56,981 nt of DNA from Polyangiaceae bacterium (GTDB taxonomy: Bacteria; Myxococcota_A; Polyangia; Polyangiales; Polyangiaceae), in assembly GCA_029941785.1 (NCBI GenBank), contig JAPYTK010000010.1, forward strand, positions 1 to 56,981, written 5' to 3'. The notes beneath the pieces are model-generated. The model saw nothing but the letters and a program-made list of their open reading frames with translations, had not been told where the DNA came from and searched no databases. The translations under genes and the position numbers were made by a program. Below, piece by piece: positions 23,324 through 30,269 of this stretch (positions are counted from its first letter, which is position 1; every line of letters starts with the position of its first letter).

Positions 23324-23782
23324 ATGAAGACCATGCGTTACATGACGGCGCTGCTCGCGATGGGTGCCATCGCCGCGGCTTGTTCAGTGAAGACCACCAA
23401 CACGGACGACGACGGCGACGGCGGCACGGGCGGAACAGGCGCCACAGTGGTCTCCAGTTCCATCTCCAGCACTGTAGCTTCGAGCACCGTGGCCTCGAGC
23501 ACGGTCACGAGCACCGTGGCGAGCTCGAGCAGCGGCGGCATGGATCTGAGCCCGATCTGCGACAGCGGCTTTGCCCTCGGCGGAGGCGCTACGAACAAGC
23601 CCTGTGCAGACTGCCTCGGCATGAATTGCTGTACCGAGTACACCACCTGCTTCGCCGATCAAGACTGCCAGGACTGTTTCATTGTGCAACAGGGCACGGG
23701 CACTTCGTGTGATGCCGGGACGCTCGATGAGGCTGTCACCAGTTGCGGGGAGGGGGCCTGCGCCTCTGAGTGCGGCGGCTGA
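23324..23782 (+). CDS. small Cys-rich lipoprotein, paralogue A
   Basis: A 152-aa lipoprotein with signal MKTMRYMTALLAMGAIAA and lipobox AAAC. A Gly/Asp stretch and a Ser/Thr/Val linker (SSSISSTVASSTVASSTV) precede a compact Cys domain: PICDSGFALGGG, CADCLGMNCCTEYTTCFADQ, DCQDCF, SCDAGTLDEAVTSCGEGACA. No known domain was recognised. A ribosome site GAGGA lies 8 nt before the ATG. The neighbour 95 bp downstream has the same leader and the same Cys domain. A surface-exposed disulfide protein is inferred. Confidence 0.88.
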   Translation: MKTMRYMTALLAMGAIAAACSVKTTNTDDDGDGGTGGTGATVVSSSISSTVASSTVASSTVTSTVASSSSGGMDLSPICDSGFALGGGATNKPCADCLGMNCCTEYTTCFADQDCQDCFIVQQGTGTSCDAGTLDEAVTSCGEGACASECGG

Positions 23783-23831: not shown

Positions 23832-23876
23832 TGACCGCGCACGCTTTAACCTAATAATGTGAAGAGGATATCCGAG

Positions 23877-24599
23877 ATGAAGACGATGCGATGGATGATG
23901 ACCTTGGCTGCCATGGGCGCGATTGCGACCGCGTGTTCAGTCAAGACGACGGACAACGACGAGGACAGCGGCTCGGGCGGCACGGGCGGCTCCGGCAGCA
24001 CGGCGACGAGCACGGCGACCGGCACGACCACGGCGACGGGCACGGGCACGACTACAGGTACGGGCAGCAGCTCGAGCACCGGTGGAATGAGCTGTGTCGG
24101 CAACCCCTTCATGTACAAGGATGAGGCCTGCGGCGCTTGCGCCGAGACGAACTGCTGTCCTGAGCTTCAGGCGTGTGGTTCTGACCAGAAGTGCCTCGAG
24201 CACTTCCAGTGCGGCCAGGATTGCATCGCTTTGATGACGGAAAATGAGGTCACCAAGATGTGTCTCGAAACGTGCGACACCACGCACGTTGAGGGCAAGG
24301 CTCTGATGGACGCCATCACCACATGCACCGAGACGAAGTGCCAGATGGAGTGTCCGCGGTCAGAGCCCATCTGCAACAGCGGCTGGGTCATCAGCGGCAC
24401 CGGCTCAAACATCGAGGCTTGCGGCATGTGCCTCAGCGACAAGTGCTGCACGGACTATACGGCGTGCGCCGAAGACACCGATTGCAGTGATTGCATCATC
24501 GGCACCATGGCCCCGGCGTCCTGCGACGCGACGATGCTCGACGAGGCTGTCAAGTCGTGTCGCGACACGAATTGCGCCGCGGAGTGTAACGCCCCCTGA
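23877..24599 (+). CDS. small Cys-rich lipoprotein, paralogue B (two Cys domains)
   Basis: A 240-aa paralogue of the preceding gene. The signal MKTMRWMMTLAAMGAIATAC and the following SVKTT repeat paralogue A nearly residue for residue. The linker is now Gly/Ser/Thr/Ala-rich. Two Cys modules follow: the first (CGACAETNCCPELQACGSDQ) is diverged, the second (EPICNSGWVISGTGSN, CGMCLSDKCCTDYTACAEDT, DCSDCI, SCDATMLDEAVKSC) matches the single module of paralogue A. Duplication of gene and module is evident. AGAGGA lies 8 nt before ATG 23877; an in-frame GTG at 23859 overlaps that site and is unlikely. Confidence 0.9.
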   Translation: MKTMRWMMTLAAMGAIATACSVKTTDNDEDSGSGGTGGSGSTATSTATGTTTATGTGTTTGTGSSSSTGGMSCVGNPFMYKDEACGACAETNCCPELQACGSDQKCLEHFQCGQDCIALMTENEVTKMCLETCDTTHVEGKALMDAITTCTETKCQMECPRSEPICNSGWVISGTGSNIEACGMCLSDKCCTDYTACAEDTDCSDCIIGTMAPASCDATMLDEAVKSCRDTNCAAECNAP

Positions 24600-24917: not shown

Positions 24918-27086
24918 ATGAGCGGGAATACTCTCGTTATCAACGTCGACATTCGCGAGATCCGTGTGGCTCTCATCGAAGATGGCGTGATCGCAGAACT
25001 TCACATCGAACGACTCAGCTCCGTTGGCACGGTCGGAAACGTCTACGTCGGGACCGTCAGCCGTGTGCTGCCCGGCATGCAAGCGGCCTTCATCGACATT
25101 GGGGAGGAAAGAGCCGCTTTCCTACATGTCGAGGACCTCATCCGGCCAGCGGATTTTGACAAATACCTGGCGAAAGAGGAGCCGGAACTCGCCGAATCGG
25201 CTTCGTCCGAATCGGACGAAGCCGATGAAGCAGCGGAGCCGGTCGACGGCCTCGCGGCGGATGATGGCGACGACGAGCCCTTGGATGACGCGGAGGACGG
25301 CGACAACGCGGACGATGCGGATGACGCCGACGACGCCGACGATGCGGATGACGCCGACGATGCGGATGACGCCGACGATGCGGATGACGCCGACGACGCG
25401 GATGACGCCGACGACGCGGATGACGAATTGAGCATCGAGGTGGACTTCGATGATGGCGAGGAGACGCCGGCGCGACAGGATGGCGCCAGCGATGGGGAAA
25501 CCGACGGCGATGAGCCTTCTGAAAACGCCGATGGTGATTCCGATGCGGACGGTGAGGCGCCGGCCGATGTCGACGCCAGTGCGGAGTCTGAAACGGCTGA
25601 GGGCGAGCGCGGCAGCGAGGAAGCCGATGGCGAGAAGCACACCGGACGAGGGCGCCGACCCCGTCGCTCGCGACGCTCGAAGGTTTCACGTAGCGCACAA
25701 GCGCCAGAGCCTGCAAAACAAGAGACCAACAAGGGCGGTCGGCGGTCGGGCAATAGTGGGGGCAATAGTGGGGGCAATAGTGGGGGCAATCGTCGCGGTC
25801 GCAAGGGGGGCCAACGCGGCCAGCGCGGGCGAGAGCGACGTGGCCGAGCTCACGAATCCTCCCGCATCTCGAAAAACACGCCGATCCGCGAGGTTGTCCG
25901 TGAGGGCCAACAGGTCGTCGTGCAGGTCACCAAGGAGCCGATCGGTACCAAGGGTGCGCGCGTCAACAGTCACATCTCCTTGCCCGGACGGTACGTCGTG
26001 TATCTCCCCACGGTGGAGCACGTTGGCATCTCGAAGCGCATCGGCATCGACAAGGAGCGCCGCCGCCTCCGTGAGGCGATTGCGTCGGTCAAACCGCCTC
26101 AGGGTGGTCTGGTTGTGCGGACGGTAGCCGAGGGGTTGACCAAGAAGCACCTCAAGAGGGACGTGGGGTATCTCGTGCGTCTTTGGCAGCAGATCAGCCG
26201 CACCCGGACCGAGGTGCGCAAGGCGCCGGCCCTTCTTTACGAGGAACTCGATCTCGTGCTCAAGACCGCGCGCGACTTGTTCACGGACGACGTGTCTCGC
26301 ATCGTGATCGACAACAAGGAGCAGTTTGTTCGCCTGGGCCGATTCGTCGATATGTTCTCGCCCGAGCGAGTGAAGGACATCGAGTTGTACGAAGGTCGCG
26401 AGCCTCTGTTCGATGCCTACGGTATCGAAGACGAGATCGGGCGCGCGATCTCCCGCAAGGTGCCGCTGACGTCGGGGGGCCATTTGGTGATCGACCAGGC
26501 CGAGGCGCTGACGGCGATCGACGTGAACACCGGTCGCTACGTAGGCAAAGATTCCAAAGATCTCGAAGGGACAATCTTGCAGACGAACCTCGAGGCGGTG
26601 CAAGAGATCGCGTATCAGCTTCGTTTTCGCAACATTGGCGGCCTGATTATTTTGGACCTCATCGATATGGATCGCGCCGGGAATCGCGAGAAGGTGCGCC
26701 GCAGGCTCGACGAGTTCCTGAGCAAAGACAAGGCGAAGACCACCCTCAATCGCATCAGCGATTTGGGACTGATCGAGATGACGCGCAAGCGGACGCGCGA
26801 GAGTCTCGGCCGGGTCATGAACGAGTCGTGTTTTTATTGCGACGGGACGGGGCAGCTGCAGAGCAAGCAGACCATATCCTTCGAAATCCTGCGCCAAATT
26901 CGACGCGACCTGTCAAACCTCAAGGGCTACAAGATCACCATCAACGCCCATCCGGCCATCGTCGACATGCTCAAGACCGAGGAACAAGATGCACTGCGTG
27001 AAGCGGAGCGGTTGTTTTCGCGTCGGATCGAGCTCATCCCCTGCGATGGCTATCATATCGAGCAATACGATCTTGAGGGGATATAG
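24918..27086 (+). CDS. rng: ribonuclease E/G family protein with a large acidic/basic insert in the S1 domain
   Basis: A 722-aa RNase E/G, first gene of the operon. The S1 domain begins GNVYVGTVSRVLPGMQAAFI and is interrupted after about residue 75. Residues about 76-319 are an insert: acidic, with 13 tandem Ala-Asp-Asp units at 131-169, then Arg/Gly/Asn-rich (NSGGNSGGNSGG). The S1/RNase part resumes at NTPIREVVREGQQVVVQVTK. The catalytic region is intact: D535 (TAIDVNTGR) and D580 (IILDLIDM) match the two metal-binding Asp of RNase E, and C638/C641 (SCFYCDGTG) the zinc-link cysteines. The C-terminus is short, as in RNase G, with no degradosome tail. Expected role: rRNA processing and mRNA decay. 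Confidence 0.93.
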   Translation: MSGNTLVINVDIREIRVALIEDGVIAELHIERLSSVGTVGNVYVGTVSRVLPGMQAAFIDIGEERAAFLHVEDLIRPADFDKYLAKEEPELAESASSESDEADEAAEPVDGLAADDGDDEPLDDAEDGDNADDADDADDADDADDADDADDADDADDADDADDADDADDELSIEVDFDDGEETPARQDGASDGETDGDEPSENADGDSDADGEAPADVDASAESETAEGERGSEEADGEKHTGRGRRPRRSRRSKVSRSAQAPEPAKQETNKGGRRSGNSGGNSGGNSGGNRRGRKGGQRGQRGRERRGRAHESSRISKNTPIREVVREGQQVVVQVTKEPIGTKGARVNSHISLPGRYVVYLPTVEHVGISKRIGIDKERRRLREAIASVKPPQGGLVVRTVAEGLTKKHLKRDVGYLVRLWQQISRTRTEVRKAPALLYEELDLVLKTARDLFTDDVSRIVIDNKEQFVRLGRFVDMFSPERVKDIELYEGREPLFDAYGIEDEIGRAISRKVPLTSGGHLVIDQAEALTAIDVNTGRYVGKDSKDLEGTILQTNLEAVQEIAYQLRFRNIGGLIILDLIDMDRAGNREKVRRRLDEFLSKDKAKTTLNRISDLGLIEMTRKRTRESLGRVMNESCFYCDGTGQLQSKQTISFEILRQIRRDLSNLKGYKITINAHPAIVDMLKTEEQDALREAERLFSRRIELIPCDGYHIEQYDLEGI
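25308..25424 (+). repeat. 13 tandem 9-bp units coding Ala-Asp-Asp
   Basis: Thirteen in-frame copies of the consensus GCSGAYGAY, many arranged as an 18-bp higher unit in which GCG-GAT-GAC alternates with GCC-GAC-GAT or GCC-GAC-GAC. Copy-number change would keep the frame, so length polymorphism between strains is likely. Confidence 0.9.
25748..25783 (+). repeat. three 12-bp direct repeats coding Gly-Asn-Ser-Gly
   Basis: Three identical copies of GGGCAATAGTGG in tandem, plus a partial fourth, within the basic part of the RNase E/G insert. They are in frame. Confidence 0.85.
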
Positions 27087-27090
27087 CGAC

Positions 27091-27438
27091 ATGACGGACC
27101 CATCGGACCAGCGTCCTCGTGATCAGCGGGTGACCATCAACAAGGAGTTTGACTCCTTCGACGCTTTCGTCAGCGAGTATGTGACCAACATCTCGCGATC
27201 CGGCGTCTTCATTCGTTCGCGTGCGCCGCTTAGCATCGGGACCAAGGTGAACTTGAAGTTCACCGTACTGATGGACGAGATCGAGACGGTGGAGGGCGTG
27301 GGTGAGGTCGTTCGCGTGCACGACAGTCCACCGGGTATCGGTGTCGTGTTTACGGAGCTGTCCGGCTACTCCAAGACCATCATCGAACAGCTCCTGACGG
27401 CTCAGGCGAGAGTGGCTGACCCGACCGAGGAGGACTAG
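27091..27438 (+). CDS. PilZ-domain protein (TIGR02266-like)
   Basis: A 115-aa protein from ATG 27091, 4 nt after the RNase stop, with GAGGGG upstream. It contains RDQRVTINKEFDSFDAFVSE, YVTNISRSGVFIRSRAPLSI, GTKVNLKFTVLMDEIETVEG and GIGVVFTELSGYSKTIIEQL. The RxxxR-like start and the N-x-S-x-x-G block are those of PilZ folds; the layout fits the TIGR02266 group expanded in myxobacteria. Cyclic-di-GMP binding is possible; the arginine motif is imperfect. Its location between an RNase and the riboflavin genes is unexpected and may only reflect operon packing. Confidence 0.82.
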   Translation: MTDPSDQRPRDQRVTINKEFDSFDAFVSEYVTNISRSGVFIRSRAPLSIGTKVNLKFTVLMDEIETVEGVGEVVRVHDSPPGIGVVFTELSGYSKTIIEQLLTAQARVADPTEED

Positions 27439-27440
27439 GC

Positions 27441-28124
27441 GTGTTCACCGGCTTGGTCGAAACCACCGCCAGGGTGCAGTCGGTCGAGCGTAGTGGCCCG
27501 GATGCTCGCATCGCGCTCAGCGTGCCCGTTGACGAGCTTTGCTGGCCACGCTTCAAGCTCGGAGCTTCGGTGGCGGTGAGCGGCGTGTGCCTCACGGTGA
27601 CTCGGGAGCGCGAGGATGGTTTCGATGCGGACGTATCAGCGGAGACGCTGTCCTTGACGACTTTGGGGTCCCTCGTCACCGGCGATGAGGTGAACATTGA
27701 GCGTTCGTTGAAACTCGGCGACCCGATGGGGGGCCATATCGTCCTCGGCCATGTGGATGGGGTGGCGACAGTGCGTGCGGTAGATGCGGTGGGCGAGGCC
27801 CGCCGCATCGTCATTCGGCCCCCTGCAGCGCTCGTCTGTTTCATCGCAGCCAAGGGTTCGGTCTGCCTCGACGGGGTAAGCTTGACCGTCAACCGCCTCG
27901 AAGCGGCGGGCGGCGGCGAAGAAGACGATTTCGAACTCATGTTGGTTCCTCATACGCTCCAGATCACCATCCTCAGCGGGTGGGCAACAGGGAGCGAAGT
28001 GAACCTCGAGGTCGACGTATTGGCGCGTTACGTGTTACGCGGTGCCGAGGTCGATCGGCGCGACGATCCTCAGGCGCGGGATGCGCGTCTGATGGACAAG
28101 CTGGCACGCGGAGGCCTAATCTAA
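27441..28124 (+). CDS. ribE: riboflavin synthase alpha chain
   Basis: A 227-aa protein of two homologous lumazine-binding barrels. The N-terminus MFTGLVETTARVQSVERS and the repeated SVAVSGVCLTVT / GSVCLDGVSLTVN pair are diagnostic, as are GHIVLGHVDGVATV and LMLVPHTLQITIL. It converts two 6,7-dimethyl-8-ribityllumazine into riboflavin plus the pyrimidine by-product. It starts with GTG 27441 two bases after the PilZ gene, whose end supplies the GAGGAGGA ribosome site. A short Gly/Glu-rich insert (EAAGGGEEDDF) lies in the second barrel. Confidence 0.96.
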   Translation: MFTGLVETTARVQSVERSGPDARIALSVPVDELCWPRFKLGASVAVSGVCLTVTREREDGFDADVSAETLSLTTLGSLVTGDEVNIERSLKLGDPMGGHIVLGHVDGVATVRAVDAVGEARRIVIRPPAALVCFIAAKGSVCLDGVSLTVNRLEAAGGGEEDDFELMLVPHTLQITILSGWATGSEVNLEVDVLARYVLRGAEVDRRDDPQARDARLMDKLARGGLI

Positions 28125-28136
28125 GGGAAATCGAAT

Positions 28137-29336
28137 ATGCCTGCTTCTGCCATTGCCCCCCGCTACCTCACGATCGACTCGGCTGTGCTGGATCGCGTCA
28201 ACCGCGCGCTCGACGCGATCCGAGCTGGAAAGATGATCATTCTCGTCGATGACGAGGATCGTGAGAACGAAGGGGATCTGACCATGGCTGCGGATCGGAT
28301 CAGCCCCGAGGCGATCACCTTCATGGCCACTCATGGCCGTGGCTTGATCTGTTTGGCCCTGGACGAAGAGCAGGTAGGCCGTTTGGACCTTCCGATGATG
28401 ACCGTGCCCGGTCGTGGCGGACCCGCTCTGGGGACCGCCTTCACCGTGAGCATCGAGGCCGCGACAGGCGTCACGACAGGGATCAGCGCGGCGGATCGCG
28501 CGCGGACGATTCAGGTCGCCACCGATCCGGAATCCAAGCCGAACGATGTCGTCACGCCGGGCCATGTGTTTCCACTGAAGGCACGGCCTGGTGGGGTACT
28601 CGTCAGGACAGGGCAGACTGAAGGCTCCGTCGACTTGGCTCGTTTGGCGGGCTGCCGCCCGGCTGGGGTGATTTGCGAGATCATGAAAGACGACGGGACG
28701 ATGGCCCGGATGCCCGACCTCGAGCAGTTCGCCGAGGAGCACAGCTTGTGCATCCTGACGGTGGCCGATCTCATTCAGTACCGCTTGCAGACCGAGACCT
28801 TGGTCAAACGCATCGAGGAACGGACGGTGACGCTCGACGCGACGGGGACGGAGTGGCGCGCGATCGTCTACGGCACCGACGTCGAAGCGCGTCAGGTCAT
28901 CGCCCTCGTGAAGGGCGAACTCGTCGATGGCGATCCGGTCTTGACGCGTGTTCATGCCGGATCGGTCGTGTCGGATCTTTTCTGCTCGACGTCGGCCGAA
29001 GGTGGACACCATTTGCGGGAAGCGATCGCGCGTATCGAGCAGGCGGGTCGCGGCGTCGTGCTCTACTTGGCTCCGCAGAGTTCTCTCGCTGAAGAACTCA
29101 GGCGAGTGACGCGCGTGACCTCGGGGCCCGACAGCGCGACGAGTCTTACCCCCGCTTCTCGTCGCGCTGGCGAACAGCACACGCTTCGGCGTTTTGGTTT
29201 GGGGGCACAGGTGCTGAGTGATCTCGGCGTGTCCAAGCTGAGGCTGCTCACAAACAGCCAACGGAAAATCGCAGGCCTCACGGGCTACGGACTCGAAGTC
29301 GTCGAGCGTGTACCCTTGGAAGCCAGGGAGAAATGA
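28137..29336 (+). CDS. ribBA: RibBA with active DHBP synthase half and degenerate GTP cyclohydrolase II half (RibBX-like)
   Basis: Residues about 15-205 are a complete 3,4-dihydroxy-2-butanone-4-phosphate synthase: [78 protein letters not shown]. Residues about 205-399 have the fold and the C-terminal [15 protein letters not shown] of GTP cyclohydrolase II. The zinc site is lost: the usual HSEC...RCDCG segment reads [18 protein letters not shown], with one Cys instead of three. The RQEGRGIGL segment reads [13 protein letters not shown] infer no cyclohydrolase activity. It starts at ATG 28137 and overlaps ribH by 4 bp. Confidence 0.93.
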
Positions 29337-29830
29337 TGGCGAAGAATACGAAACAAGATGAGATCACGGTCGTCGAGGCCAACATGGTCGTACCCCAAGG
29401 CAGTCGATTTACGATCGTCGCGGCTCGCTTTAACAGTTTCATCGTCGACCACCTCGTGACGGGCGCGGTGGACACCTTGGTCCGCCATGGTGCCTCGAGG
29501 AGCGCAATCACGGTCGTCAAAGCGCCCGGGGCCTGGGAGATGCCGATGGTGGCACAGCGGGTGGCTCGCCAAGATGGCGTGGATGCCATCGTCGCTGTCG
29601 GATGTGTGATCCGGGGCGGCACTCCGCACTTTGAGTACATCGCCGGTGAAGTCACCAAGGGCTTGGCTCAGGTGTCGCTTCAGAGTGGTGTGCCAGTGGC
29701 CTTTGGCGTGCTGACGACGGATACCATCGAGCAAGCGATCGAGCGTGCCGGTACCAAGGCGGGCAACAAGGGCGCGGAAGCAGCGATGGCGGCGATCGAA
29801 ATGGTCGGACTCGTCAAGCAGCTCGGTTGA
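29333..29830 (+). CDS. ribH: 6,7-dimethyl-8-ribityllumazine synthase
   Basis: A 165-aa lumazine synthase: [38 protein letters not shown] (substrate-binding AWE), [20 protein letters not shown] with the catalytic His of PHFEY, and [20 protein letters not shown] followed by [12 protein letters not shown]. It joins the pyrimidine intermediate with dihydroxybutanone phosphate. Start ATG overlaps the RibBA stop as ATGA, so the two are probably co-translated. An N-terminal extension of about 20 residues precedes the conserved core. Confidence 0.96.
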
Positions 29831-29837
29831 CGTTACC

Positions 29838-30269
29838 ATGGGAGCTCGTAGCGATGGCCGTCAGTCGGCGCTTCAGATCTTGTTCGCGCTCGATGCGCAA
29901 GAAGCGGAAGCTGTGGCGCACGACGTCGTCGAGCTCGCGATCGCCGATTTTTGGCGGCAGACACCGGGGGCTCTGGAGGGGAAGGCCTTCGCCGACGAAC
30001 TGGTGAAGCAAATCATGAGTCGCCGGGACGCCATCGACGAGCAGATCGGTCGAGCAAGTCGTACGTGGCGCCTGGATCGAATGGCACGAGTGGATCGCAA
30101 CGTGCTTAGGCTCGGAACTGCGGAATTGCTCGAACGTGATGTGCCGCGGGCGGTTGTCATCGATGAGGCGGTCGAGCTGGCGAAGCGTTTCGGCGGTGAG
30201 GGGTCCGGTGTTTTCATCAATGGCGTACTCGATCGCATCGCCGAGGATATCGAACAAGGCGCTTCTTAA
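29838..30269 (+). CDS. nusB: transcription antitermination factor NusB
   Basis: A 143-aa NusB: ARSDGRQSALQILFALDAQ at the N-terminus (arginine-rich boxA RNA-binding helix), then RMARVDRNVLRLGTAELLE, VPRAVVIDEAVELAKRFGGE and GSGVFINGVLDRIAEDIEQG. It binds boxA RNA with NusE (S10) for rRNA antitermination. It starts at ATG 29838, 7 nt after ribH; ribH-nusB pairing is common in bacteria. It is the last gene of the operon and is convergent with the sigma-54 activator. Confidence 0.96.
   Translation: MGARSDGRQSALQILFALDAQEAEAVAHDVVELAIADFWRQTPGALEGKAFADELVKQIMSRRDAIDEQIGRASRTWRLDRMARVDRNVLRLGTAELLERDVPRAVVIDEAVELAKRFGGEGSGVFINGVLDRIAEDIEQGAS

What the first reader, a model, noticed from the sequence alone, without database searches (positions are those of the whole stretch)
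24918..27086. RNase E/G with a 244-residue acidic-then-basic insert inside its S1 domain
Seen: the S1 domain is broken after about residue 75 and resumes at about residue 320. The gap holds 13 tandem Ala-Asp-Asp units, then an Arg/Gly/Asn-rich segment, so charge flips from strongly negative to strongly positive. Known: RNase E normally carries its disordered, RNA- and partner-binding tail after the catalytic core. Inference: here a degradosome-like or condensate-forming region has been placed within the RNA-binding S1 domain, and the two charged halves may pair with each other or compete with RNA.
Basis: partly seen in the sequence, partly recalled or inferred. Interest (0 to 1): 0.62.

Follow-up and report, generated by a model that had tools for sequence, protein, structure and literature searches.

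The report
Charge-polarised disordered insert in RNase E/G
A bacterial RNA-cutting enzyme of the RNase E/G family carries a long floppy insert, acidic first and arginine-rich second, inside its RNA-binding S1 domain; such inserts were already known in other bacteria and plants, but this bacterial family has its own version, whose charge order is kept even though its sequence is not.

Summary
ORF 24918-27086 (+, 722 aa) is the genome's only RNase E/G. Its S1 domain is interrupted at residues 75-322 by 165 acidic residues (net -73, including 13 tandem Ala-Asp-Asp units) and then 83 basic, Arg/Gly-rich residues (net +22). AlphaFold2 models the core well and residues 97-310 as disordered. It is not an artefact or unique: same-family genomes carry inserts of about 100-460 aa at the same place. 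The kind is known: S1 inserts are published for alphaproteobacteria and plants, and I measured 135-244 aa inserts at the same site in five alphaproteobacterial genes. What looks new is the Polyangiaceae version. All 43 distinct inserts of 200 aa or more run acid then base, although insert sequences are scrambled (33% identity to the window, 27% for shuffles, 73% for the core). In the Myxococcota sampled, proteins with the insert lack a C-terminal tail. The same charge order exists in the 30-aa loop of insert-less relatives, so this looks like growth in place, not a transplanted degradosome tail. Most likely role (inferred): an Arg-rich RNA-capture arm next to the S1 site, tempered by an acidic RNA-mimicking block. 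Condensate formation is possible but untested.

The parts
24918..27086 (+). RNase E/G (Rne/Rng family ribonuclease) gene, 722 aa, single copy in the genome
   Evidence: NCBIfam TIGR00757 472.5 bits against cut-off 325.95; Pfam RNase_E_G 326.5 bits
24918..25139 (+). Residues 1-74: RNase H-like start and first half of the S1 domain, with invariant Phe58 and Phe68
25140..25883 (+). S1 insert, residues 75-322 (248 aa, about 30 of them an ancestral loop)
   Evidence: disordered at pLDDT under 50 over nearly all of residues 97-310
25146..25175 (+). Residues 77-86: short helix at the start of the insert, part of a conserved edge (IRPDDFEAYL-like in relatives)
25140..25634 (+). Acidic part, residues 75-239, net charge -73
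25308..25424 (+). (Ala-Asp-Asp)13, residues 131-169; the only place in the genome where four consecutive Ala-Asp-Asp units are encoded
25635..25883 (+). Basic Arg/Gly/Asn-rich part, residues 240-322, net charge +22; holds the 12-bp repeat 25748-25790 (Ser-Gly-Gly-Asn type)
25884..27083 (+). Residues 323-722: second half of S1 (Lys345), 5'-sensor, DNase I-like domain (Asp535, Asp580), Zn-link (Cys638, Cys641), small domain; the protein ends here with no C-terminal tail

Best explanation
It is a clade-wide, in-place expansion of the variable loop of the RNase E/G S1 domain into a disordered polyampholyte with fixed polarity: short helix, acidic block, Arg/Gly-rich block, then the next S1 strand. 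Shown: location, predicted disorder, polarity, Arg bias, rapid sequence turnover, and presence across one Polyangiaceae-type clade. Inferred: the Arg-rich block, which joins directly to the S1 strand that precedes the RNA-contacting Lys345, acts as a flexible arm that captures RNA and feeds it to the S1/5'-sensor groove. The acidic block acts as a nucleic-acid mimic that covers this arm or the groove, lowers non-specific binding and helps release. In the expected tetramer (known for E. coli RNase E, not tested here) four such arms would also give weak acid-base contacts between subunits. It would thus do the auxiliary RNA-binding work that a C-terminal tail does in E. coli RNase E.
For: Insert edges at the same S1 site in all relatives measured. 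Same site as the Caulobacter insert in 4OXP: window residue 74 aligns to chain 94 and residue 312 to chain 156. Acid-then-base order in 43 of 43 distinct inserts of 200 aa or more, each over 2 sd from its own shuffles; 21 of 21 at 45-100 aa; 65 of 69 at 20-45 aa. Sequence not conserved: 33% identity to the window against 27% for shuffles, core 73%, so the order is not kept by sequence inertia alone. The basic part is Arg-biased, R/(R+K) 0.86 against 0.62 in the core, and its charge varies little (+11 to +26) while the acidic part varies a lot (-24 to -131) (the split method favours polarity, so only the ranges and Arg bias are used). Catalytic, S1 and Zn-link residues intact, so the enzyme should be active. 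Precedent: the acidic disordered tip of Hfq mimics nucleic acid and autoregulates RNA binding (PMC5606850); acidic residues of the Caulobacter S1 insert were suggested to mimic RNA, and its helix enters the RNA site (PMC4245959).
Against: No biochemical data on any Myxococcota RNase E/G was found. Fixed polarity could reflect what the two edges of the loop tolerate rather than a function. Alphaproteobacterial inserts at this site do not share the order: basic stretch early, acidic later, no net acid-to-base shift. One member of the clade, L054, has only 55 aa there.
Confidence: 0.5

Rival explanations
1. Degradosome-like scaffold or condensate driver: the two charge blocks make the enzyme assemble with RNA and with other copies, as the charged C-terminal region does in Caulobacter BR-bodies, but from within the S1 domain.
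For: BR-body assembly depends on Arg-rich and acidic charge blocks (PMC10412687; PMC12691583). Among Myxococcota and other loci measured here, inserts of 90 aa or more and C-terminal tails of 60 aa or more never occur together (0 of 63 against 17 of 117), as expected if one can stand in for the other. Some of those tails are also Arg-rich and acidic (L169, L188).
Against: The 0 of 63 rests on a few evolutionary events and on loci partly picked for long frames. Alphaproteobacteria have both an S1 insert and a 260-290 aa tail. One acid and one base block is not the alternating pattern of BR-body proteins. No partner motif was tested.
Confidence: 0.25
2. Mostly neutral expansion: a loop that tolerates almost anything grew by repeat slippage in high-GC genomes, with weak limits on charge.
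For: Low complexity, DNA-level repeats, length from 55 to 459 aa within one clade, near-complete sequence turnover.
Against: Polarity kept in 43 of 43, narrow range of basic charge, strong Arg bias, conserved edges. (Ala-Asp-Asp)4 occurs nowhere else in this genome, so that repeat is not a genome-wide habit.
Confidence: 0.17
3. Docking site for a specific partner such as a DEAD-box helicase, as in Caulobacter, where RhlB binds the RNase E fragment that contains the S1 insert.
For: The same site in Caulobacter lies in the RhlB-binding fragment (PMC4245959). The short edge helix (residues 77-86) is conserved and predicted with fair confidence.
Against: The bulk of the insert has no conserved linear motif that I could see and very low identity. 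The conserved edge is also present where the insert is only about 100-130 aa (L052, L053, L055, L114).
Confidence: 0.08

Closest known systems
S1-domain insert of alphaproteobacterial and plant RNase E (Voss et al. 2014, PMC4245959; structure 4OXP)
   Same: Same site in the S1 domain, highly charged, predicted disordered, variable in length and sequence.
   Different: Here acid then base; in five alphaproteobacterial genes an early basic stretch, then acidic, with no net shift. Up to 459 aa here against 50-150 aa published (244 aa in Methylobacterium). No C-terminal tail here; those alphaproteobacteria also have one.
C-terminal disordered region of Caulobacter/Sinorhizobium RNase E (BR-body scaffold)
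   Same: Arg-rich and acidic blocks in one disordered region of RNase E.
   Different: Inside S1, not after the core; one acid and one base block rather than many alternating ones; condensation not tested.
Acidic disordered C-terminal tail of Hfq (PMC5606850)
   Same: Acidic disordered segment next to a basic RNA-binding surface, proposed here as RNA mimic.
   Different: Unrelated protein; short acidic tip rather than a 165-residue block.
E. coli RNase G / RNase E
   Same: Catalytic core, S1 residues and Zn-link conserved; like RNase G it ends after the small domain.
   Different: E. coli RNase E has no such insert; the window protein misses both single-function NCBIfam cut-offs.

Membership tests
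Rne/Rng (RNase E/G) family | Sequence profile above curated cut-off | tested here: met
   TIGR00757 472.5 bits, cut-off 325.95; PF10150 326.5, cut-off 25.5
Rne/Rng (RNase E/G) family | Catalytic Asp pair, Zn-link cysteines and S1 aromatic/Lys residues | tested here: met
   Asp535, Asp580, Cys638, Cys641, Phe58, Phe68, Lys345 invariant in 50 sequences, matching E. coli; the roles of these residues are from general knowledge of E. coli RNase E
RNase G proper (equivalog PRK11712) or RNase E proper (PRK10811) | Score above equivalog cut-off | tested here: not met
   495.4 against 594 and 285.6 against 908; the insert may lower these scores
RNase E proteins with an S1 insert (alphaproteobacteria, plants) | Insert at the same S1 position | tested here: met
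   4OXP: residue 74 to chain 94, residue 312 to chain 156; same profile anchors in L213, L215-L218
RNase E proteins with an S1 insert (alphaproteobacteria, plants) | Highly charged and predicted disordered | tested here: met
RNase E proteins with an S1 insert (alphaproteobacteria, plants) | Same charge layout as alphaproteobacterial inserts | tested here: not met
   Acid-to-base shift z 6.6 in the window; -2.3 to 1.1 in five alphaproteobacterial inserts. Layout is not part of the published definition.
RNase E proteins with an S1 insert (alphaproteobacteria, plants) | RhlB binding or effect of deletion on activity | not testable with these tools
   Needs protein chemistry
BR-body/degradosome scaffold | Disordered scaffold after the catalytic core | tested here: not met
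   The window protein has no residues after the small domain
BR-body/degradosome scaffold | RNA-dependent condensation; recruitment of PNPase, helicase or others | not testable with these tools
   Needs imaging or pull-down

The most novel reading that the evidence does not exclude
In Polyangiales the scaffold and RNA-binding role that other RNase E proteins keep in a C-terminal tail was taken over by the S1 loop, which became an electrostatic gate: the acidic block and RNA compete for the Arg-rich arm beside the active groove, and the charge order, not the sequence, is what selection keeps.
Probability: 0.22. Interest if true: 0.62.

Novelty: new variant of a known kind. Interest (0 to 1): 0.42.

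Why it matters
If the reading is right, this is a natural series (30 to 460 aa, same site, same charge order, different sequence) in which the effect of a disordered charge-polarised loop on a central RNase can be tested by length and order alone. It also warns that RNase E/G proteins without a C-terminal tail, usually filed as 'RNase G-like', may carry their disordered region inside the catalytic half.

Tried and rejected
Frameshift or read-through of a false frame: rejected; the downstream half continues in the same frame and independent genomes agree. Chance charge segregation: rejected by shuffles. Unique oddity of this genome: rejected. Moved C-terminal tail: not supported; the acid-to-base loop is already present in insert-less relatives, and no tail was seen in the sampled Polyangiales. 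A second RNase E in the genome that might carry the tail: none found. Balanced charges (acid cancels base): not the case; the net is negative in every insert of 200 aa or more. Strict either/or between S1 insert and tail as a general rule: rejected by alphaproteobacteria, which have both. Fold search added nothing about the insert; it confirmed the core (E. coli RNase E, Z 28.7 over 441 residues, though rmsd 13.3 suggests that domains are placed differently; 4OXP Z 20.5 over 179 residues, rmsd 2.5). Sinorhizobium L214 gave no measurable insert and is not used. Papers in the held library on Myxococcota RNase E structure or degradosome: none on point by title and abstract; absence there is not proof.

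Full report
WHAT IS THERE. ORF 24918-27086 (+) encodes 722 aa with no break. It is an RNase E/G family protein (TIGR00757 472.5 bits against a cut-off of 325.95; Pfam RNase_E_G) and the only one found in its genome. The alignment to E. coli RNase E has two blocks, residues 8-83 and 322-710, with nothing alignable between. Catalytic Asp535 and Asp580, Zn-link Cys638 and Cys641, and S1 residues Phe58, Phe68 and Lys345 are invariant across 50 relatives. So the enzyme is expected to be active and only the S1 loop is unusual.

THE INSERT. I built profiles for the two sides of the loop from 32 insert-less relatives and measured the gap in 155 of 168 loci, 141 distinct inserts. In the window it spans residues 75-322, 248 aa; relatives without an insert have about 24-50 aa there. 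The insert begins with a short conserved helix, runs through 165 acidic residues (net -73; 13 tandem Ala-Asp-Asp), switches to 83 Arg/Gly/Asn-rich residues (net +22), and rejoins S1. Shuffles of the same letters never reach the observed block charges. AlphaFold2 with 50 sequences gives pLDDT above 90 for most of the core, below 50 for nearly all of 97-310, and a helix at 77-86. The model therefore says the insert leaves from the loop between S1 strands 67-70 and 332-339. Its core matches E. coli RNase E and the Caulobacter S1/5'-sensor fragment 4OXP.

HOW WIDESPREAD. Nearly every same-family genome with a complete gene measured here has a long insert. On a tree of the core, 50 of 51 proteins of one supported clade, which includes the window, Polyangium, Sorangium and Labilithrix, have 90 aa or more. 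A second family of the same order grew one separately (58 to 182 aa), and one Nitrospirota protein has 120 aa. Other Myxococcota mostly have the short loop. Support values come from a quick tree search, and some long branches are unsure.

CHARGE ORDER IS KEPT, SEQUENCE IS NOT. The shift of positive relative to negative residues is towards the C-terminal side in 43 of 43 distinct inserts of 200 aa or more, each more than 2 sd from its own shuffles, and in 65 of 69 short loops. Yet outside its edges the insert is 33% identical to the window's on average, against 27% for shuffled letters, while the core is 73% identical. These proteins are related, so 43 is not 43 independent events; but the turnover means that the order is not simply inherited sequence. 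The repeat units differ between lineages, for example Ala-Asp-Asp, Glu-Ser-Asp-Asp and Arg-Glu-Ala-Arg-Glu-Gly. The basic part prefers Arg over Lys more than the core does in the same proteins (0.86 against 0.62). The split used is chosen at the charge minimum, so it cannot itself prove polarity.

RELATION TO TAILS. In the loci measured, inserts of 90 aa or more never go with a C-terminal tail of 60 aa or more (0 of 63; 17 of 117 among the rest). This fits the idea that one can replace the other, but it reflects few evolutionary events, the sample included loci chosen for long frames, and alphaproteobacteria have both. I therefore treat it as suggestive only.

COMPARISON WITH WHAT IS KNOWN. 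S1 inserts of 50-150 aa that are charged and predicted disordered were described for alphaproteobacteria and plants. In Caulobacter part of the insert is helical and points into the RNA site, the helicase RhlB binds the fragment that holds it, and removing the plant insert lowers activity (PMC4245959). The site is the same as here. Five alphaproteobacterial genes that I measured have 135-244 aa inserts with an early basic stretch, a later acidic one, and no net acid-to-base shift. So the window protein is a member of the kind 'RNase E/G with an S1 insert' by site, charge and disorder, but its layout is its own. I did not find it described for Myxococcota in the held papers, which does not exclude earlier mention elsewhere.

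MECHANISM. Shown: site, predicted disorder, polarity, Arg bias, intact core. Inferred: an Arg-rich arm beside the S1 groove captures RNA; the acidic block competes for the arm as an RNA mimic, as shown for Hfq (PMC5606850) and suggested for Caulobacter RNase E. Condensate formation as in BR-bodies is a reasonable rival, and neutral growth of a permissive loop is the null. I put about 0.5 on the arm-and-mimic reading, 0.25 on the scaffold or condensate, 0.17 on mostly neutral growth, and 0.08 on a dedicated partner site.

VERDICT. Real and clade-wide, a new variant of a known kind, with a sound and testable charge-order pattern but no functional evidence yet.

Noticed in passing
27091-27438 (+): A PilZ-domain gene (Pfam PilZ E 3.2e-11) starts 4 bases after the RNase E/G stop codon. 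A homologue lies on the same strand within 1.2 kb downstream in 118 hits among the loci searched, with and without the S1 insert, so the pairing is old and not tied to the insert. A second-messenger link to RNA decay is an untested idea.
   Followed up: partly
23324-23782 and 23859-24599 (+): Two neighbouring ORFs for similar small Cys-rich, lipoprotein-like proteins with Ser/Thr/Gly-rich linkers, apparently tandem paralogues (by eye).
   Followed up: no
27441-30269 (+): Downstream ORFs read like riboflavin synthase, RibBA, lumazine synthase and NusB from their sequences (by eye only).
   Followed up: no
L177, L178, L179: One other Myxococcota family has a second RNase E/G copy with C-terminal tails of 711-1006 aa, without an S1 insert.
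   Followed up: no
L101 (Nitrospirota): A separate 120-aa S1 insert with a base-acid-base order, closer to the alphaproteobacterial layout.
   Followed up: no
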